From: an uncultured Bacteroidales bacterium
Lineage (GTDB): Bacteria; Bacteroidota; Bacteroidia; Bacteroidales; Bacteroidaceae
DNA length: 60,790 nt
Reading direction: 5' to 3'
Assembly (NCBI GenBank): GCA_902799655.1
Contig: CADCBH010000008.1
Location: 1 to 60,790 of the forward strand
Below, in pieces: positions 27,178 to 35,182 of this stretch. The notes below the pieces were generated by a model that saw nothing but the letters and a program-made list of their open reading frames with translations, was not told where the DNA came from and did not search any database. The stretch's first letter is position 1, and every line of letters begins with the position of its first letter. A program made the position numbers and the translations under genes.

Positions 27178-28089
27178 TTAGATTTTTTCGGCAATTCTGA
27201 GTTTTGCACTTCGACTGCGTGGATTTATCATTTGCTCTTCATCACTTGGTACGATAACCTTGTTGTTGACGAGTTTAAATGGGCTTTTAGTATTTCCGAA
27301 GAAATCTTTCTCCATTTTCCCATCTAGGTTACCTGTTTTCATGATGTTCTTAACGATACGGTCTTCTAGCGAATGGTATGTGATAATGCTGAGGCGACCA
27401 CCAACCTTCAATAGACGAGTTGCCGCGTTTAGCATTTCACGAAGAGCATCCATCTCATGATTAACCTCTATACGTAGAGCTTGAAAAACCTTCGCCATAT
27501 CTTTTTTTTCATGCTCTGCTCGTAGAATTCCTTCTATAATTGTGCAGAGTTGACCTGTGGTTTCAATGCGGTGTTGCTGACGGGCATTGATGATGGCTTT
27601 GGCAAGTCGGCGAGAATCTTTTAGTTCGCCGTAGAGGTAAAATATATCAGACAATTGCTCTTCTGCATAGTCGTTTAAAATGTCAGCAGCAGTCTTTCCT
27701 GCACGATTGTTCATGCGCATATCTAGCGGTGCATCATAACGGAATGAGAAACCACGAGTTTCATCGTCAAAGTGGTGGCTTGATACACCAAGATCTGCCA
27801 ATAATCCGTCAATATGCTCTACACCATAATATCGCATCCAATTCTCGAGGTACCTAAAGTTGCTTCGGATAAAGGTGAACCGATTATTTGCAATTATATT
27901 GCGTTCGGCATCAGCATCTTGGTCAAAGCTATACAAATGACTATTATCATCCAGACGTGAGAGAATCTCTTTAGAGTGGCCGCCACCGCCAAAGGTGACG
28001 TCAATATAGATGCCGCCTGAATGGATGTTTAGGCCGTCAATGCTCTCTTTTAAGAGAACGGGAACGTGATATGTCTCTGCCGTTGTCAT
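27178..28089 (-). CDS. rsmH: 16S rRNA (cytosine1402-N4)-methyltransferase RsmH
   Basis: 303 residues. YHVPVLLKESIDGLNI start, SAM-binding loop DVTFGGGGHSKEIL, DGLLADLGVSSHHFDD, and GFSFRYDAPLDMRMN. It methylates C1402 of 16S rRNA in the P site. The ATG shares one base with the mraZ stop (TAATG), so translation is coupled. Confidence 0.96.
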   Translation of the reverse strand: MTTAETYHVPVLLKESIDGLNIHSGGIYIDVTFGGGGHSKEILSRLDDNSHLYSFDQDADAERNIIANNRFTFIRSNFRYLENWMRYYGVEHIDGLLADLGVSSHHFDDETRGFSFRYDAPLDMRMNNRAGKTAADILNDYAEEQLSDIFYLYGELKDSRRLAKAIINARQQHRIETTGQLCTIIEGILRAEHEKKDMAKVFQALRIEVNHEMDALREMLNAATRLLKVGGRLSIITYHSLEDRIVKNIMKTGNLDGKMEKDFFGNTKSPFKLVNNKVIVPSDEEQMINPRSRSAKLRIAEKI

Positions 28090-28550
28090 TATTCCTTTTC
28101 TGCTTCTTCGGTTTCCATGAGCTCTTCAAGGGCATTGCTGAATGCCTCTGCACTTAATTGGTGCTGATCTACCTTGGTGTTGCTCCATATTTCAATGGTG
28201 TCGCCCATGCCGATAAATTTGATGTCCAGTTCAATCTCTGCCATGCGTAGATAGCGCTTGGGCAACAAAAAACGACCATTCCCGTCGAGTGTCAAGACTT
28301 CAACTTCGCTTACAAATTGGCGGAATACCTGTTGGTGCTGTTTGTTCCAACGGTTCAACCTGAGACGTAAAGCATCCATCTGCTCATTCCATACACTTTC
28401 AGGATAGAGAACGAGGCAAGGCTGGAAAACATCTTTGCGCAACACCAGTCGTTCCTCGCTACTCGCTTGCAGTATTTTACGGAATACTGCGGGTAGGAAG
28501 GCACGTCCTTTTGTGTCCATTTTTGCCTCTATATTACCTAAAAAACGCAT
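28089..28550 (-). CDS. mraZ: Transcriptional regulator MraZ
   Basis: 153 residues with two SpoVT/AbrB-like halves: MRFLGNIEAKMDTKGRAFLP at the start and VLTLDGNGRFLLPKRYLRMA in the second half, the latter being the MraZ signature. In other bacteria MraZ is a ring-shaped repressor or activator of the dcw operon, binding tandem TGGG-type repeats in its own promoter. Matching repeats are at 28599-28628. Confidence 0.95.
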   Translation of the reverse strand: MRFLGNIEAKMDTKGRAFLPAVFRKILQASSEERLVLRKDVFQPCLVLYPESVWNEQMDALRLRLNRWNKQHQQVFRQFVSEVEVLTLDGNGRFLLPKRYLRMAEIELDIKFIGMGDTIEIWSNTKVDQHQLSAEAFSNALEELMETEEAEKE

Positions 28551-28741: not shown

Positions 28742-29566
28742 ATGGGACAGATTACCGAGAAGACTATCGACATTGATGGTATTTTAAAGACAAAGATGGG
28801 GAATAAGGCGAAATGGCTACCTCGTCCATTGGTGTCGTGGCTTAAGAGAATTGCCCATCAAGACCAAGTTAATGCTTTTCTTTGGGAGTCACGCGATAAG
28901 ATTGGAACACCTTGGTTGGAGGCTTGTGTCGAATACTTGAAGATGACATTAGTGATAGAAGGAGAAGAAAACCTTCCTGATCCTAATGACGGAAAGTTGT
29001 ATACGTTTGTCTCTAATCATCCGCTGGGTGGTGAGGATGGAGTAGCTCTAGGTGCACTCATAGGTCGTCACTACAATTCTCGTTTCCGCTATCTGGTCAA
29101 CGATTTGTTGATGTATTTGCCAGGCTTGGCTCCTCTTTGTATTCCTATCAACAAGACAGGCAAGGCCAGTCGTAACTTTCCTGCAATGGTTGAGGCCGGT
29201 TTTCAGAGTGATAATCATATGCTGATGTTTCCAGCCGGATTGTGCTCACGTCGTCATAATGGCGTTATCCGTGATATCCCGTGGAAGAAGACATTTGTAG
29301 CTAAAAGCGTAGAATATCAGAGAGATGTAGTACCCATTCATTTTAGTGGTGAAAACTCTAATTTCTTCTATCGCTTGGCCTCCTTCTCTGACCGCTTTTT
29401 GCCTTTCAACTTGGCCATGCTGTTTTTGGTTGATGAAATGTACAAAAATGTCGGGAAGTCTTTTAGGGTATCCATTGGTAAACCCATCCCTTGGCAAACA
29501 TTTGATAAGAGTAAAAGCCCGATGGAATGGGCACAGTATGTTCAAGAAATCATCTATAACCTATAA
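28742..29566 (+). CDS. glsA: PlsC-like acyltransferase, probable glycine-lipid O-acyltransferase GlsA
   Basis: 274 residues from ATG 28742; the open frame before it would run through the promoter. It has an acyltransferase core with FVSNHPLGGEDGVALG (the NHPxGG form of the His/Asp catalytic motif) and MLMFPAGLCSRRHNG, an acceptor-site motif like FPEG. In Bacteroides thetaiotaomicron a similar enzyme, GlsA, adds the second fatty acid to N-acyl glycine to make glycine lipids, and its gene neighbours glsB as here. A general lysophosphatidate acyltransferase is the alternative, but the pairing with the next gene favours GlsA. Confidence 0.75.
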   Translation: MGQITEKTIDIDGILKTKMGNKAKWLPRPLVSWLKRIAHQDQVNAFLWESRDKIGTPWLEACVEYLKMTLVIEGEENLPDPNDGKLYTFVSNHPLGGEDGVALGALIGRHYNSRFRYLVNDLLMYLPGLAPLCIPINKTGKASRNFPAMVEAGFQSDNHMLMFPAGLCSRRHNGVIRDIPWKKTFVAKSVEYQRDVVPIHFSGENSNFFYRLASFSDRFLPFNLAMLFLVDEMYKNVGKSFRVSIGKPIPWQTFDKSKSPMEWAQYVQEIIYNL

Positions 29567-29579
29567 CAATATCAGACAA

Positions 29580-30581
29580 ATGGAACAACCGATTATCCAG
29601 CCGATTCCCAAGGAGGTTCTTAAGCGCGAACTCACTCCTGACAAACAGTTACGCTTGACCAACAAGAGTAATAACGAAATCTACATCATTACGGCTCACA
29701 ATTCGCCTAATGTTATGCAGGAAATAGGTCGTTTGCGTGAGATCGCTTTCCGTGAGGCTGGCGGAGGCACAGGTAAGGAGACTGATATTGACGAATTCGA
29801 TATTTGTGAGAACTGTTATAAGCAGCTGATCGTATGGAACCCGGAAGAGGGAGAAATTATCGGTGGTTATCGTTATTTGTTGGGTACTGATTGGGAATAT
29901 GATACAAATGGACAGCCTAAATTGGCTACGAGCCACATGTTCCACTTCTCGCAGAAATTCCTGGAAGAGTATGCCCCATATACAGTTGAATTGGGACGTT
30001 CTTTTGTGACTTTGCCTTATCAATCTTCTCGTATGGGTGCTAAAAGTCTCTTTGCCCTTGATAATCTTTGGGACGGTTTAGGTGCTTTGACAGTCATTCG
30101 CCCTGACATCAAATATTATTTTGGTAAGATGACGATGTATCCCAGTTACATTCGAAAAGGACGAGATATGATTCTTTATTTTCTGAAAAAGCATTTTGAT
30201 GATAAAGACAATCTGATTATCCCGATGAAACCGTTACAATTGGAAACGGATCCTGCTGAACTGGAGGCACTTTTCTGTGGAAAAGACTTTAAGGAAGACT
30301 ATAAAATATTAAATGGCGAAATTCGTAAGCTAGGATATAACATTCCACCATTGGTCAACGCATATATGGGCCTTTCGCCAACGATGAAGCTTTTCGGAAC
30401 AGCCATTAACTACGGCTTTGGTGACGTTGAGGAAACAGGCATATTAATCGCTGTTGATGAGATTCTGGAAGAAAAGCGTAAGCGCCATATCGATTCTTTC
30501 ATAAAGGAGCACCATGATGAACTTGAGATTACTTCTGGTGCTAATAAAATCATTTATAGAGATAAGGGTTCGAAACCATGA
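29580..30581 (+). CDS. glsB: GNAT-like N-acyltransferase, probable glycine-lipid synthase GlsB
   Basis: 333 residues from MEQPIIQPIPKEVL, 13 nt after the glsA stop; an upstream extension of the frame only shadows glsA. It matches the OlsB/hemolysin-like acyl-ACP N-acyltransferase family: REIAFREAGGGTGKE, IIGGYRYLLGTDW, VELGRSFVTLPYQ and MTMYPSYIR. The family puts a 3-hydroxy fatty acid on the amino group of an amino acid (ornithine for OlsB, glycine for GlsB). Its stop overlaps the start of the kinase-like gene (ATGA), tying lipid synthesis to the next four genes. Confidence 0.8.
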   Translation: MEQPIIQPIPKEVLKRELTPDKQLRLTNKSNNEIYIITAHNSPNVMQEIGRLREIAFREAGGGTGKETDIDEFDICENCYKQLIVWNPEEGEIIGGYRYLLGTDWEYDTNGQPKLATSHMFHFSQKFLEEYAPYTVELGRSFVTLPYQSSRMGAKSLFALDNLWDGLGALTVIRPDIKYYFGKMTMYPSYIRKGRDMILYFLKKHFDDKDNLIIPMKPLQLETDPAELEALFCGKDFKEDYKILNGEIRKLGYNIPPLVNAYMGLSPTMKLFGTAINYGFGDVEETGILIAVDEILEEKRKRHIDSFIKEHHDELEITSGANKIIYRDKGSKP

Positions 30582-31441
30582 AGTTGTATTATCAAGTTGC
30601 CTGTCATGTTTTTTCTGTAGAGCTGCCTGTAGGAGCTTCTGTTCTCGATGAAATGGGACAATATGCGCCTTTTTCCGTTGCTCAGACAGACGATGTGGTG
30701 TTCTCCTTAAAGGTCGTGAGTGCAGAAGATTTTCCCTCTATAAATGAAATGACTGTTGAGATGAACCAGGATGATGATGGTTCGCAAATTCTAGCCGGTC
30801 ATGTTAATGGACAGCCATATTTTGAATTCCAACTGAGGGGACGTTGTGCTGCTCGTATGTTGACGGATAGAGATTATCGAAAGGCTAAGGTACTCCTAGT
30901 GGATGAGCATCTGTTTGGTATCAATAACGCCTTGATGGTCATGTACGCTTTGGCCACCTCCCGCCTGCAGACTGCTCTCTTTCATTCCTCAGTGGTGAGT
31001 TGTGGTGAACATGCCTATATGTTCTTGGGTAAGAGCGGTACGGGTAAGAGTACGCATTCAAGCCTTTGGCTGAAATATATTAATGGCACGCAATTGGTCA
31101 ATGATGATAATCCTGTAGTCCGTCGTTTACCCGATGGATTCTATGTTTTTGGGTCCCCATGGAGTGGTAAAACACCTTGCTACCGAAATGTTCGCTATCC
31201 TTTGGGTGGTGTAGTACAACTCAGCCAGGCACCTTATAATAAGATTCATCGTCTTAACCCCTTGGCTGCCTATGCTGCATTGGTGCCTTCTATCTCTGGT
31301 AAGCGTTGGGATCAATTGGTAGCTGAAGGTCTCCATGAAACTGAGAATATGATGGCTGGAGAAATCCGTGTATGGCATTTGGAATGTCTGCCAAATGAGG
31401 CTGCAGCTCGTTTGTGTTCTGAAACAATCCGAACGGTATGA
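30578..31441 (+). CDS. HPr-kinase-like P-loop kinase of a putative peptide-maturation cluster
   Basis: 287 residues. The C-terminal half has an HprK/PEP-carboxykinase-like fold: FHSSVV before the P-loop GKSGTGKST (151-159), the acidic NDDN pair near 175-178, and GSPWSGK at 192-198. The N-terminal 110 residues are not the HPr kinase regulatory domain and are unrecognised. HprK-like proteins beside a PqqD protein occur in RiPP clusters, some phosphorylating the peptide. No HPr is encoded here. Overlaps both neighbours by 4 nt. The kinase fold is confident; the substrate is unknown. Confidence 0.75.
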   Translation: MKLYYQVACHVFSVELPVGASVLDEMGQYAPFSVAQTDDVVFSLKVVSAEDFPSINEMTVEMNQDDDGSQILAGHVNGQPYFEFQLRGRCAARMLTDRDYRKAKVLLVDEHLFGINNALMVMYALATSRLQTALFHSSVVSCGEHAYMFLGKSGTGKSTHSSLWLKYINGTQLVNDDNPVVRRLPDGFYVFGSPWSGKTPCYRNVRYPLGGVVQLSQAPYNKIHRLNPLAAYAALVPSISGKRWDQLVAEGLHETENMMAGEIRVWHLECLPNEAAARLCSETIRTV

Positions 31442-31890
31442 CAAATGCAATATCCGATCATGAGATCATCCAAAATGCCATATCATTGGTTCGGGAAGGT
31501 TTGCGTGTTACTTTTCCTGTCAAGGGAAATAGTATGTTGCCTTTTATCATAGGGGGTAAGGAAAGTGTTGATTTGGTTAAACCCGCAGATTTGCAGGTTG
31601 GACACGTCGTTCTAGCGTGGGTTGAGGGATGTCGTTATGTCGTTCATCGTGTCATTCGTATCGAGGGTGAACAGGTTACACTGATGGGTGATGGTAATAT
31701 TGTTGGTGTCGAACACTGTACCTTGTCTGATGTCGCAGCGCTAGCTGTCAATGTGGTTTCAAGACAAGGCAAACACCACAACCTTTATGCGCCTTGGCGT
31801 GTGAAAGCCAGCAGGCTGTGGTTTAGGTTGCTGCCTATTCGTCGTTGGATATTAGCTGTCTATCGTAGAGTCTATTTAAATTTTATATAA
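31438..31890 (+). CDS. S24/S26-type signal-peptidase-like protease (Ser/His form)
   Basis: 150 residues. The serine motif is GNSMLP (Ser32) in VKGNSMLPFI, then VGHVVLAW, then VVHRVIRI with His70 where classical bacterial enzymes have lysine, then LMGDGN (83-87). This Ser/His arrangement is that of archaeal/eukaryotic/SipW-type signal peptidases. There is no N-terminal anchor; the C-terminus is a basic, aromatic helix (RLWFRLLPIRRWILAVYRR) that may lie on the membrane. Between a kinase and a PqqD protein, leader-peptide removal is a plausible job, but this is inference. Confidence 0.75.
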   Translation: MTNAISDHEIIQNAISLVREGLRVTFPVKGNSMLPFIIGGKESVDLVKPADLQVGHVVLAWVEGCRYVVHRVIRIEGEQVTLMGDGNIVGVEHCTLSDVAALAVNVVSRQGKHHNLYAPWRVKASRLWFRLLPIRRWILAVYRRVYLNFI

Positions 31891-31893
31891 ATA

Positions 31894-32163
31894 ATGAAAC
31901 AAAAAGAAGGGTTCGTATTGCGTACTGTTTGTGGTGAGCATGTCATTGTTGGCGAAGGCCTTGGAACTATTGACTTCGGCAAGCTGATTAGCCTTAATGA
32001 GACTGCAGCGTGGCTGTGGAAAAAGGCCGTTGAAATGGGCGATTTTGATGTAGAGCAGTTGACAAATGCTCTCTGTGAAGAGTACGAGGTCGATGCAGAA
32101 CAAGCTCGTCAGGATGTAATTAAGATGGTTGGTCAATGGCAGGAATTGGGAATCGTTGAATGA
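31894..32163 (+). CDS. PqqD-like (RiPP recognition element) protein
   Basis: 89 residues. It has the PqqD pattern: a beta-rich N-terminus (EGFVLRTVCGEHVIVGEG), the hallmark ISLNETAAWLWKKA, then helices DVEQLTNALCEEYEV and AEQARQDVIKMVGQWQELGIVE. PqqD domains bind leader peptides and present them to modifying enzymes. It starts 3 nt after the peptidase gene and overlaps the ABC gene by 4 nt. The role here depends on a precursor peptide that is not seen nearby. Confidence 0.85.
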   Translation: MKQKEGFVLRTVCGEHVIVGEGLGTIDFGKLISLNETAAWLWKKAVEMGDFDVEQLTNALCEEYEVDAEQARQDVIKMVGQWQELGIVE

Positions 32164-33785
32164 ATTATCTCTGCTGGATTGTACGTAATATGGTGGGAAT
32201 CAGGTGGAACACTCTGATTCGCATTATAGTCGGCATTACTCAAGTAGTGCTCGGCCTGACTATGATATGGTTCAGTAAACAATTCATTGATGTCACAATC
32301 CGGACGGGTAGCGACAGGGACGTTGTTTTCATGGTGTGTCTTTTGGTGTTTTTAGTTGTCTCTTCCATCTTATTACGCCAACTATATTATTATATGACCA
32401 CCAAGGCCAATACCCATCAGTCTAATCATATACGTCTTCGAGTGTTTAGCACTTTGTTCCGGCGACAGTTGTATGAGGACCAATTGCATTCAGGCGATGT
32501 GTCCTCGCGCCTTTCTAAAGACATTGATACTGTGGCTGATGTCACGACTTCGCTATTGCCACAGTTTGTGGTGACGGGTGTTCAATTGTGTGGCGCCTTC
32601 CTCTTGCTGTATTCTATGGATAGTCGGTTGGCTCTAGCGCTTTTGTTGATTACTCCGCTAATTGTTGCTTTTGGTAAACTATTCGCCCATAAGCTGCGCC
32701 ATATGACATTAGATATCCGTCAGCAAGAAAGTACTATTCAGATGCAGGTGCAAGAGGGAATGGAGCATAATGCAGTTCTTCGTTCGCTTGGAAGCGAGCA
32801 GTGGGTGACGGGTCGTCTCAATGATATGCAAGATCAGTTGATGGGTAGGGTATTGCGCCGTACGCGTTTTACAGTGGTAACGCGCCTTCTTCTTGCTTTC
32901 ACTTTCAGTTTGGGCTACCTTTTTGCTTTTGTGTGGGGTGGTCTGCAATTGCGTGCTGGTGCAATAACATTTGGAGTAATGACCTCGTTCCTGCAATTGG
33001 TTGGACAGATACAACATCCGATACTCAGTCTGCTCAACATGATGCCCCAATTTTTCTATGCGACAGCAAGCATTGACCGTTTGGAAGAGCTCTCCAGTCA
33101 GGCTACTTCAGTTGATGCCGTATTGACAGAATCTGAATTGCGTCCTACATTGGGTATCAATATCAAAGACGTGACTTTTGGCTATGCCTCAGGTGATAGT
33201 CTAGTGCTCAACCAATTCTCTCATATTTTCTCTCCAGGCAGCAAGACTGCCATCATGGGAGAGACGGGCATCGGTAAGACAACACTTTTCCGGTTGATGC
33301 TCGCCTTTGTGCGTCCTGATAGCGGTGAAATGGAACTCTTTGATGCCGAGGGTCATAAAAGTGTTATATGCGAAAACACTCGAGCCAACTTTGTCTTTGT
33401 ACCACAAGGTAATACATTGATGAGTGGAACGGTGCGTTATAATCTCCAATTAGCTCGACCTGAGGTTACTGATGATGAACTGCGACAAGTGCTTCATGTG
33501 GCTATGGCCGACTTCGTCTATCAACTGCCCCAGGGTATTGATACACCATTGGGTGAACGTGGTATCGGACTCAGTGAGGGACAGGCTCAGCGCATTGCTA
33601 TCGCCCGAGGACTATTGCGTCCAGGTAGTGTTCTCCTTCTTGATGAAATTAGCTCTTCTCTCGACGAAGAGACGGAACGAGAACTATTTAGTCGTCTTTT
33701 TGACTTCTGTAAGAATAAAACAATGATTTTCATTACCCATCGCCCAGCTGTCAGCCAGTTGTGTAACGATGTTATACGTCTGTGA
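32160..33785 (+). CDS. ABC exporter, fused membrane and ATPase domains
   Basis: 541 residues. A six-helix type I exporter membrane domain (about 15-310) is followed by a nucleotide-binding domain: Walker A GETGIGKTT (near 366), Q-loop FVPQGNTLMSG, signature LSEGQAQRIAIARG, Walker B SVLLLDEISSSLD (near 490) and switch His in FITHRP. It lacks the C39 peptidase domain of bacteriocin exporters, so any leader would have to be removed by a separate protease, such as the one encoded two genes upstream. Last gene of the operon; the stop is 2 nt from the convergent dgt stop. Confidence 0.9.
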   Translation: MNYLCWIVRNMVGIRWNTLIRIIVGITQVVLGLTMIWFSKQFIDVTIRTGSDRDVVFMVCLLVFLVVSSILLRQLYYYMTTKANTHQSNHIRLRVFSTLFRRQLYEDQLHSGDVSSRLSKDIDTVADVTTSLLPQFVVTGVQLCGAFLLLYSMDSRLALALLLITPLIVAFGKLFAHKLRHMTLDIRQQESTIQMQVQEGMEHNAVLRSLGSEQWVTGRLNDMQDQLMGRVLRRTRFTVVTRLLLAFTFSLGYLFAFVWGGLQLRAGAITFGVMTSFLQLVGQIQHPILSLLNMMPQFFYATASIDRLEELSSQATSVDAVLTESELRPTLGINIKDVTFGYASGDSLVLNQFSHIFSPGSKTAIMGETGIGKTTLFRLMLAFVRPDSGEMELFDAEGHKSVICENTRANFVFVPQGNTLMSGTVRYNLQLARPEVTDDELRQVLHVAMADFVYQLPQGIDTPLGERGIGLSEGQAQRIAIARGLLRPGSVLLLDEISSSLDEETERELFSRLFDFCKNKTMIFITHRPAVSQLCNDVIRL

Positions 33786-33787
33786 TG

Positions 33788-35128
33788 TTAGATGATGGGC
33801 AGCGATATGCCGTTAATCTTTTGGTAAACATCAAGGGCATAGACATCAGTCATTCCGCTGATATAGTCGATGACAGCCATCAGACGTGTCTCCAGATTGG
33901 GATCGTCAATGTGATATTGACTTGACACGCGTCCAATGAGCTGCTGCGAGTAATAGCGATCAGGGTGCATGACGGCTTCTACCATCTGTTGCATGAGCGT
34001 TTCCATAATCTTATAACCTGCTAATTCTACATCGAGTACGGGACGGCTGCGGTATATGCGTTGCACAGAGACTTCCGCACATCTGCGGTAGGCTTCACGC
34101 TGCAATGGCGAGATATGGTCAATAAGACTCCCAACGAAAGAACCAGCCAGGATTTCGTCCTCATGTTCTATGAAGGTGTTAACGCATTCGTTCTCCAATT
34201 TTCCAATGACACAGGCGCGTAGATAAACGATCTGCTCATTCTTGTCAGTGAGTTGTTCCTTCTCGATGCGTTCTAAGATGCGCTGCTGATTATCGGGGTC
34301 GAAGAAGTCAAGCATCAGTTGTGAGGCTTGCTCAAAGGTGATAATCTTTAATTTGTGGGCATCTTCCAAATCCATAATTTCGTAGCAGATATCGTCAGCA
34401 GCCTCTACAAGATAGACTAATGGATGGCGCGCGTAACGTAGCGGCTCACCCTCGTTAGAGAGTCGAATAATCCCCATTTCATCGGCAATTTTCTGATAAG
34501 TGTCTTGCTCGCTTTGGAAGAATCCGAACTTGCCCTTCTTGCTGGCAGCTGAGGACGCATATGGATATTTGACGATGCTGGCGATGGTGGAATAGGTCAT
34601 AACGAATCCACCAGGTCTGCGTCCTTTGAATTGGTGAGTAAGCAGTCGGAAAGCATTGGCATTACCTTCGAAATGGGTGATATCATCCCAGAACTCTGGT
34701 GATACCTGTTGGCGCAAATCGCGACCAGGTCCTTCGGTAAAGAATGTCTGGATGGCTTTTTCGCCACTGTGTCCAAAAGGCGGATTGCCTAAGTCGTGAG
34801 CCAGACAGGCTGTAGAGACGATTTGTCCAATCTGTTCAAACAAGGTGTCTTTCAACTCCGGTCGTTTCGAGCTGATAATGCGATGAGCAACGTCGTTACC
34901 CAACGACAAACCAACGCTGGCAACCTCTAACGAGTGGGTTAAGCGGTTGTGTACAAAGACACTGCCAGGTAGTGGGAATACCTGTGTCTTGTTCTGTAGC
35001 CTACGAAACGGTGCAGAAAAAATGAGCCGATCGTAGTCGCGCTTGAATTCAGAACGGTCATCATGACGCTCTGTGTGGCGCTGTTCCTGACCGAGTCGTT
35101 TGTTTGAAATGAGTCGTTTCCAATCCAT
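33788..35128 (-). CDS. dgt: Deoxyguanosinetriphosphate triphosphohydrolase (dGTPase)
   Basis: 446 residues from MDWKRLISNKRLG; a Met 14 codons earlier lies upstream of the promoter. HD-domain motifs: NRLTHSLEVASVG, TACLAHDLGNPPFGHSGE and VEAADDICYEIMDLEDA. It splits dGTP to deoxyguanosine and triphosphate, adjusting the dNTP pool; the divergent dut has a matching role. The promoter at 35137-35144 implies a nearly leaderless mRNA. The 3' end abuts the ABC transporter gene, leaving no room for a terminator. Confidence 0.93.
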   Translation of the reverse strand: MDWKRLISNKRLGQEQRHTERHDDRSEFKRDYDRLIFSAPFRRLQNKTQVFPLPGSVFVHNRLTHSLEVASVGLSLGNDVAHRIISSKRPELKDTLFEQIGQIVSTACLAHDLGNPPFGHSGEKAIQTFFTEGPGRDLRQQVSPEFWDDITHFEGNANAFRLLTHQFKGRRPGGFVMTYSTIASIVKYPYASSAASKKGKFGFFQSEQDTYQKIADEMGIIRLSNEGEPLRYARHPLVYLVEAADDICYEIMDLEDAHKLKIITFEQASQLMLDFFDPDNQQRILERIEKEQLTDKNEQIVYLRACVIGKLENECVNTFIEHEDEILAGSFVGSLIDHISPLQREAYRRCAEVSVQRIYRSRPVLDVELAGYKIMETLMQQMVEAVMHPDRYYSQQLIGRVSSQYHIDDPNLETRLMAVIDYISGMTDVYALDVYQKINGISLPII

Positions 35129-35136
35129 AGTGAGTG

Positions 35137-35144
35137 CAAAGGTA
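35137..35144 (-). promoter_or_regulatory. dgt promoter, -7 element
   Basis: The minus strand reads TACCTTTG, with only 8 nt between it and the ATG at 35128. Confidence 0.6.
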
Positions 35145-35153
35145 CAAAAAAAA

Positions 35154-35182
35154 CATAATTCATAAATCATAAATTCATAATT
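35154..35182. repeat. Short tandem AT-rich units between dgt and dut
   Basis: Four adjoining 7-8 nt units CATAATT, CATAAAT, CATAAATT, CATAATT lie between the divergent promoters. Similar in style to the block at 60474-60590. Possibly slippage-prone DNA or a binding array. Confidence 0.5.

What the first reader, a model, noticed from the sequence alone, without database searches (positions are those of the whole stretch)
28742..33785. Glycine-lipid acyltransferases fused in one operon with a kinase-peptidase-PqqD-ABC set lacking a precursor peptide
Seen: six plus-strand genes with 4-nt overlaps or gaps of 13 nt or less. GlsA/GlsB-like enzymes are followed by an HPrK-like kinase (GKSGTGKST), a Ser/His S24/S26 peptidase, a PqqD-like protein and an ABC exporter without C39 domain. 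Known: discrete PqqD domains recognise leader peptides; HprK-like kinases occur in RiPP clusters. Inference: a peptide-maturation and export machine, perhaps making a lipidated or phosphorylated product, coupled to amino-acid lipid synthesis. There is no room for a precursor gene inside the operon, so the substrate is encoded elsewhere or is not a ribosomal peptide.
Basis: partly seen in the sequence, partly recalled or inferred. Interest (0 to 1): 0.85.

Follow-up and report, generated by a model that had tools for sequence, protein, structure and literature searches.

The report
Phosphopeptide maturation machine with dispersed precursors
Next to two glycine-lipid genes, this gut-type Bacteroidota genome carries a small machine that looks built to tag, trim and export little peptides; the peptides appear to be encoded by about 18 tiny genes scattered round the genome, mostly beside genes for secreted-looking proteins.

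Summary
In detail: glsA-glsB-kinase-peptidase-PqqD-ABC in one tight plus-strand run. The gls link is real but local: it marks one kinase clade (20 of 70 named loci), in which the four-gene set follows glsB; in the window it lies between glsB and dgt, usual neighbours elsewhere. The set matches four of the five core enzymes of 'linear polyphosphorylated peptide' (LPP) RiPPs, published in 2026 as restricted to Bacillota: HprK/PEPCK-fold kinase, SipW-like Ser/His/Asp peptidase, discrete lasso-type RRE, MsbA-like exporter; the NTP-transferase is absent here. The 'missing' precursor was found in trans: a leader profile (YxKPxMEVVExxxQxxLLAGS, acidic variable core) finds 17 small ORFs in this genome, none in the window; one more was found by hand. 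The reversed profile finds none in 151 genomes. Leaders go with the kinase (80 of 122 versus 2 of 29 family genomes; 7 of 15 versus 1 of 231 across the order), but more weakly within the genus (100 of 128 versus 12 of 22). The genome has one PqqD protein, this one. 13 of the 18 ORFs lie directly behind a gene for a protein with one shared C-terminal tail. So: an LPP-like machine acting in trans on a fleet of precursors. Phosphorylation, cleavage and role are inferred.

The parts
28742..29566 (+). glsA, lyso-glycine-lipid O-acyltransferase; host operon, not seen as part of the peptide machine
   Evidence: NF053697 396 bits, cut-off 260
29580..30581 (+). glsB, glycine N-acyltransferase; overlaps the kinase gene by 4 nt
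   Evidence: NF053696 533 bits, cut-off 300
30578..31441 (+). K: HprK/PEPCK-fold kinase (LppK-like)
   Evidence: AF2 model pLDDT 93.9; Foldseek PEPCK 3.5e-7, HprK 1e-4; P-loop and NDD invariant in 38 aligned sequences
31028..31054 (+). P-loop of K (GKSGTGKST, residues 151-159)
   Evidence: residues 151 and 153-159 invariant in the 38 aligned sequences
31438..31890 (+). P: SipW/archaeal-type signal-peptidase-like leader peptidase (LppS-like)
   Evidence: TIGR02228 5e-5, below cut-off; profile hits signal peptidase IB 2e-4, SEC11A 0.008; Ser32/His70/Asp85 invariant in the 34 aligned sequences
31894..32163 (+). D: PqqD-like discrete RRE (LppB / lasso-B1-like); the only PF05402 match in this genome
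   Evidence: PF05402 9.3e-18; profile best PDB hit lasso RRE TfuB1 1.4e-6; single match in genome
32160..33785 (+). ABC: MsbA-like exporter without C39 domain (LppD-like)
   Evidence: PF00664, PF00005; best NCBIfam match TIGR02203 MsbA, 230 bits, below its cut-off of 602
33788..35170 (-). dgt, frequent neighbour of glsB in other genomes; marks the likely insertion point
   Evidence: dgt seen beside glsB in 18 of 29 gls loci from other genomes, 1.5 kb flanks
28089..28550 (-). mraZ, frequent neighbour of glsA in other genomes
   Evidence: mraZ or mraW seen beside glsA in 15 of the same 29 loci

Best explanation
The K-P-D-ABC genes encode an LPP-like RiPP maturation and export machine of Bacteroidota. 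D binds the YxxP leader of small precursors, K phosphorylates a serine at the leader/core junction (most likely the conserved Ser of LLAGS), P cuts off the leader, and ABC exports the acidic core peptide. The precursors are not in the operon: about 18 are scattered round the genome, mostly directly downstream of genes for large secreted-looking proteins with a common C-terminal tail, a few directly upstream of genes with a lipoprotein-like start. The four genes follow glsAB because the set was inserted between glsB and dgt in an ancestor of this clade and probably uses that transcript. Shown by computation: the parts, the kinase fold, the motifs, the leader family, its association with K and with secreted-protein genes. 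Inferred: binding, phosphorylation, cleavage site, export, biological role, and the insertion history.
For: Same parts as LPP (Popov 2026, PMC13381572). Peptidase triad invariant; D closest to lasso RREs; K fold. Leader profile: 17 matches in G000 at E<=1e-3; Y and P invariant in its 21 rows (the 7 seed rows were chosen by a YxxP pattern); Ser at Y+20 in 39 of 47 collected peptides (LPP motif has it at Y+18). Reversed profile: 0 of 151 genomes. Co-occurrence: 80 of 122 K+ versus 2 of 29 K- family genomes, p=5e-9, genus-stratified p=0.0015; order sample 7 of 15 versus 1 of 231, p=5e-9. D is the only PqqD protein of the genome. 13 of 18 leader ORFs in G000 lie directly behind one of 49 tail-protein genes; 19 of 31 leaders in loci L269-L298 likewise. 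Two of ten scanned precursors have a weak hit to the paeninodin lasso precursor model, residues 1-11 (E 0.09, below cut-off).
Against: No biochemical data. The NTP-transferase, part of the LPP core, is absent from this set. 42 of 122 K+ family genomes have no leader hit at E<=1e-3. Within the genus the association is weaker: 100 of 128 K+ versus 12 of 22 K-, p=0.03; good-quality genomes 44 of 61 versus 2 of 8, p=0.014, the two exceptions being G425 and G523. D is also missing in 14 of 15 leader-bearing K- genomes that were searched, so these carry leaders without a detected machine. With the looser K threshold (E<=1e-5) the order result is 7 of 49 versus 1 of 197, p=6e-5; the 1e-30 threshold was set after seeing the table. 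The commonest K-P-D context in the family (rpoD-c5) has no ABC gene beside it. The leader profile was seeded from ORFs near K, so nearness of those seeds to K is not independent evidence.
Confidence: 0.7

Rival explanations
1. A gls-coupled system: the six genes act together to make a lipidated amino acid or peptide, or to export glycine lipids through the MsbA-like ABC protein.
For: Tight six-gene run with 4-nt overlaps; gls-K linkage kept in 20 of 70 named loci; the exporter's best NCBIfam match is MsbA.
Against: K in 122 of 151 family genomes with only G000 beside glsB; the set lies in many unrelated contexts; gls occurs without the set, often between mraZ/mraW and dgt; gls-linked K is confined to one clade.
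Confidence: 0.1
2. K-P-D acts on an adjacent non-RiPP protein, such as c5, the secreted-looking protein that precedes K in the rpoD-c5-K-P-D arrangement, and the YxxP leader family is served by something else.
For: c5 lies beside K in 48 of the 150 surveyed loci; the one member scanned matches no Pfam or NCBIfam family.
Against: No c5 beside the window set; c5 begins with what looks like a Sec signal peptide (by eye); the leaders carry the YxxP motif read by RREs, and the genome has no other PqqD protein. Whether G000 has c5 elsewhere was not searched.
Confidence: 0.13
3. A remnant of a lasso-peptide cluster: K, D and ABC are what is left of a paeninodin-like lasso system.
For: D is closest to lasso RREs; kinase and exporter are shared with paeninodin clusters (PMC13381572).
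Against: The four genes are open in the window and found together in many named loci; catalytic residues of P and the P-loop of K are invariant; no macrolactam synthetase or B2 peptidase in the operon (rest of the genome not searched for them).
Confidence: 0.05

Closest known systems
Linear polyphosphorylated peptides (LPP), lpp cluster of Paenibacillus alginolyticus (Popov et al. 2026, PMC13381572; abstract, passages and sections 6, 9, 11, 12 read)
   Same: Discrete RRE, HprK-like kinase, archaeal-type SpI leader peptidase with Ser/His/Asp, MsbA-like exporter, no cyclase in the set, YxxP leader with a Ser 18 (LPP) or mostly 20 (here) residues after the Tyr, variable cores.
   Different: Bacteroidota, whereas the authors call LPP restricted to the Bacillota; no NTP-transferase in this set; no precursor in the operon; about 18 dispersed precursors, mostly beside secreted-looking protein genes; leader consensus YxKPxMEVVExxxQxxLLAGS rather than YxxPxVLxHQxIxFETxxS; sits behind glsAB.
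Paeninodin-type phosphorylated lasso peptides
   Same: HprK-like kinase, discrete RRE, ABC exporter, [YW]xxP leader (from PMC13381572).
   Different: Lasso clusters have B2 cysteine peptidase and macrolactam synthetase, not seen in this operon; the peptidase here is SpI-like.
glsA/glsB glycine-lipid synthesis
   Same: The two upstream genes are equivalogs.
   Different: Neighbours of the set in one clade only; no evidence that the peptide machine takes part.
NCBIfam HPr-rel-A system (TIGR04352 kinase, TIGR04353 PqqD)
   Same: Kinase plus PqqD pair; D matches TIGR04353 at 6e-4, K matches TIGR04352 at 0.033.
   Different: Both below the curated cut-offs.

Membership tests
LPP RiPP system | Archaeal-type SpI leader peptidase with Ser/His/Asp triad | tested here: met
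   Ser32, His70, Asp85 invariant in 34 aligned sequences; signal peptidase hits, NCBIfam one below cut-off
LPP RiPP system | Discrete RRE (PqqD fold) | tested here: met
   PF05402 9.3e-18; lasso RRE TfuB1 1.4e-6
LPP RiPP system | HprK-like kinase | tested here: met
   PEPCK/HprK fold, best TM-score 0.53; P-loop and NDD invariant
LPP RiPP system | MsbA-like exporter | tested here: met
   best NCBIfam match MsbA, below its cut-off
LPP RiPP system | NTP-transferase in the core set | tested here: not met
   absent from the operon; a nucleotidyltransferase-like gene (name recalled, not tested in a library) is near K in 12 of 150 surveyed loci
LPP RiPP system | Precursor gene inside the cluster | tested here: not met
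   none in the window; 17 matches elsewhere in the genome
LPP RiPP system | Leader motif YxxPxVLxHQxIxFETxxS | tested here: inconclusive
   YxxP and a spaced Ser are shared, the rest differs
LPP RiPP system | RRE inside the LPP clade of the RRE tree | not tested
   no tree of D with LPP RREs was built
LPP RiPP system | Polyphosphorylated Ser in the product | not testable with these tools
   needs mass spectrometry
Lasso peptide (paeninodin type) | Macrolactam synthetase and B2 leader peptidase | tested here: inconclusive
   not in the operon; the rest of the genome was not searched for them
Glycine-lipid synthesis glsA/glsB | NCBIfam equivalog scores | tested here: met
   NF053697 and NF053696 over cut-off

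The most novel reading that the evidence does not exclude
One central kinase-peptidase-RRE-exporter matures a whole fleet of different phosphopeptides, each a dedicated partner of the secreted protein encoded beside it. The machine would be a widespread house-keeping device of surface biology in these gut bacteria rather than a toxin cluster.
Probability: 0.35. Interest if true: 0.88.

Novelty: new variant of a known kind. Interest (0 to 1): 0.75.

Why it matters
If true, phosphopeptide RiPPs are not a Bacillota speciality: the kinase is in 122 of 151 sampled genomes of this family, and its substrates would have gone unseen because they are tiny, variable and unlinked. It supplies a testable substrate family for a PqqD-kinase-peptidase set that has none in its operon, ties it to secreted proteins of gut Bacteroidota, and shows that cluster-based RiPP mining can miss systems whose precursors sit in trans.

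Tried and rejected
Coupling to gls: rejected on distribution. A leader-bearing small ORF inside the window: none by profile; a loose pattern scan gave 11 window ORFs, none with the leader. c5, the protein before K in many relatives, as the substrate here: not beside the window set; the rest of G000 was not searched for it. T9SS name for the shared tail: the resemblance is recalled; the Pfam scan (20 neighbour proteins) and NCBIfam scan (10) gave no T9SS family. Pairing of an [AS]R[ED] motif in cores (12 of 47) with AR motifs before partner tails: short motif, tail profile seeded from adjacent genes, so not claimed. A fold of the peptidase was not obtained; a second structural aligner was not available.
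Full report
What is there. GlsA and GlsB are equivalogs. D is a PqqD protein and ABC has the membrane and ATPase domains with no C39 match. K passes no family cut-off by sequence, but its AlphaFold2 model (mean pLDDT 93.9) matches PEPCK at 3.5e-7 and HprK at 1e-4; the best TM-score is 0.53, so this is a superfamily match. P matches archaeal-type signal peptidase below cut-off and signal peptidase IB and SEC11A by profile; its Ser, His and Asp are invariant in the 34 aligned sequences, which were 33 of 61 available relatives and the window.

The gls neighbourhood. In 29 gls loci from other genomes, with about 1.5 kb flanks, mraZ or mraW was seen beside glsA in 15 and dgt beside glsB in 18. In the window both flanks are present, with K-P-D-ABC between glsB and dgt. 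Of 70 named loci found with K, 20 have glsA-glsB directly upstream. On a tree of 47 K proteins (window plus L082-L127; the other 24 named loci were left out) the gls-linked ones fall in one starred clade of 23 rows, 21 gls and 2 others. Of those two, L099 begins at a contig end and L101 shows no gls in its 8.4 kb upstream. In the 151-genome family sample K is found in 122 genomes and glsB in 146; on reading the two place lists only G000 has them together (the glsB list is cut at its end). One insertion into the gls operon explains this, with L101 unexplained.

Other contexts of K. In 150 surveyed loci, c5 lies beside K in 48, usually as (rpoD)-c5-(clostripain-like)-K-P-D without ABC; K-P-D-ABC lies in varied places; a nucleotidyltransferase-like gene is near K in 12; Alistipes-type loci have ABC-K-P without D. 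The loci are those brought in by the searches, and at least one contig is counted twice (L062 and L111).

Known relatives. Popov et al. 2026 (PMC13381572; abstract, passages and sections 6, 9, 11 and 12 read) describe LPPs: SpI-like peptidase, discrete RRE, HprK-like kinase, NTP-transferase, MsbA-like exporter, and precursors with a YxxP leader. They call LPP and paeninodins restricted to the Bacillota. The window set has four of these five enzymes. In the listings that I saw (searches; some listings capped) no paper was plainly about such a system in Bacteroidota; of PMC10352776, on Bacteroidales RiPPs, I saw passages only.

The precursors. Small ORFs near sets in other genomes share a leader. 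A profile of seven of them gave 17 places in G000 at E<=10: 16 leader ORFs, one of them with a stop inside, and one match in a 415-aa frame that looks like chance. A 21-row profile gave 17 in G000 at E<=1e-3, none in the window; one more was found by hand behind a tail gene, so about 18. Apart from the interrupted one they encode 41-63 residues. In 47 collected peptides (17 of the 18 in G000, the interrupted one left out, and 30 from L269-L298; seeds from other genera left out) the leader is basic and the core acidic, mean net charge -5.3, and Ser stands at Y+20 in 39. Of ten precursors scanned none passes a Pfam or NCBIfam cut-off. The reversed profile found nothing in the same 151 genomes.

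Association. Family sample: 82 of 151 genomes have leaders, 80 of 122 with K and 2 of 29 without (p=5e-9; 9e-9 without four known seed genomes; genus-stratified p=0.0015). Good-quality genomes: 61 of 86 versus 1 of 21. Order sample of 247: leaving out G000, 15 have strong K (E<1e-30, a threshold set after seeing the table) and 7 of these have leaders, versus 1 of the other 231; with K at E<=1e-5 it is 7 of 49 versus 1 of 197. Genus sample of 150: 100 of 128 versus 12 of 22, p=0.03; good quality 44 of 61 versus 2 of 8, p=0.014. So the association is strong between genera and families and weaker inside the genus, with exceptions; 10 of the 12 genus exceptions are below 90% completeness. Of 41 K- genomes chosen for a D search (22 of 29 of the family sample, 18 of 22 of the genus sample, and G387), 39 also lack D, so K and D mostly come and go together. 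G000 has one PqqD protein and one K. Fourteen listed leaders in ten other genomes lie within 15 kb of a K, at least four of them profile seeds.

Where the precursors lie. In G000, 49 places share a C-terminal tail; 13 of the 18 leader ORFs follow such a gene within about 150 nt, against roughly 0.25% per random place. The tail profile was seeded from seven such neighbours, one of the 13 was found only by looking there, and of the 38 tail genes without a known leader at that point 20 were looked at. Four others precede a gene with a lipoprotein-like start, by eye. In loci L269-L298, one of them from G000, 19 of 31 leaders follow a tail gene. In G149, nine of ten leaders lie within about 30 kb of one of its K genes, eight of them directly upstream of a large gene with a lipoprotein-like start. 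Of 20 neighbouring proteins scanned, some carry LamG, Big_2, InlB-type, LRR or beta-helix domains, six have no Pfam match, and a few are ordinary enzymes.

Mechanism. By analogy with LPP, D would bind Y and P of the leader, K phosphorylate the Ser at Y+20, P cut close before it, and ABC export the core. Only the parts and associations are shown here. The role of the product is open; the neighbourhood points to surface biology.

Verdict. A new variant of a known kind, in another phylum, with trans-encoded precursors. The gls link is a matter of position. After checking the calls I lowered the main confidence from 0.72 to 0.70, because leader-bearing genomes without K mostly lack D as well.

Noticed in passing
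L076-L081, L152-L202: In 48 of 150 surveyed loci c5, a secreted-looking protein of about 140-200 aa, lies beside K-P-D, often after rpoD and sometimes with a clostripain-like peptidase between; the one c5 scanned matches no Pfam or NCBIfam family.
   Followed up: partly
L128-L148: Thirteen loci, mostly Alistipes or Rikenellaceae, have a recB-like helicase, ABC, K and P in a row without an adjacent D.
   Followed up: no
L243-L245 (G149, C1:1797300-1848230): Nine leader ORFs, eight of them directly upstream of a large gene with a lipoprotein-like start, surround a K set of one genome.
   Followed up: partly
L229-L241, L249, L255: Peptide cores often carry AR[ED] or SR[ED] and many partner proteins have a similar AR motif just before the shared tail; possibly meaningful, possibly chance.
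   Followed up: partly
G000 C30:39230 (L217, L242): One leader ORF is interrupted by a stop at the leader/core junction.
   Followed up: no
G409, G473, G480: Kinase relatives with one stop codon inside.
   Followed up: no
L132 1-5613: A K end is followed by a gene with a P-loop-like motif (by eye) and then dgt, dut and the TPR gene: another arrangement at the same dgt locus.
   Followed up: no
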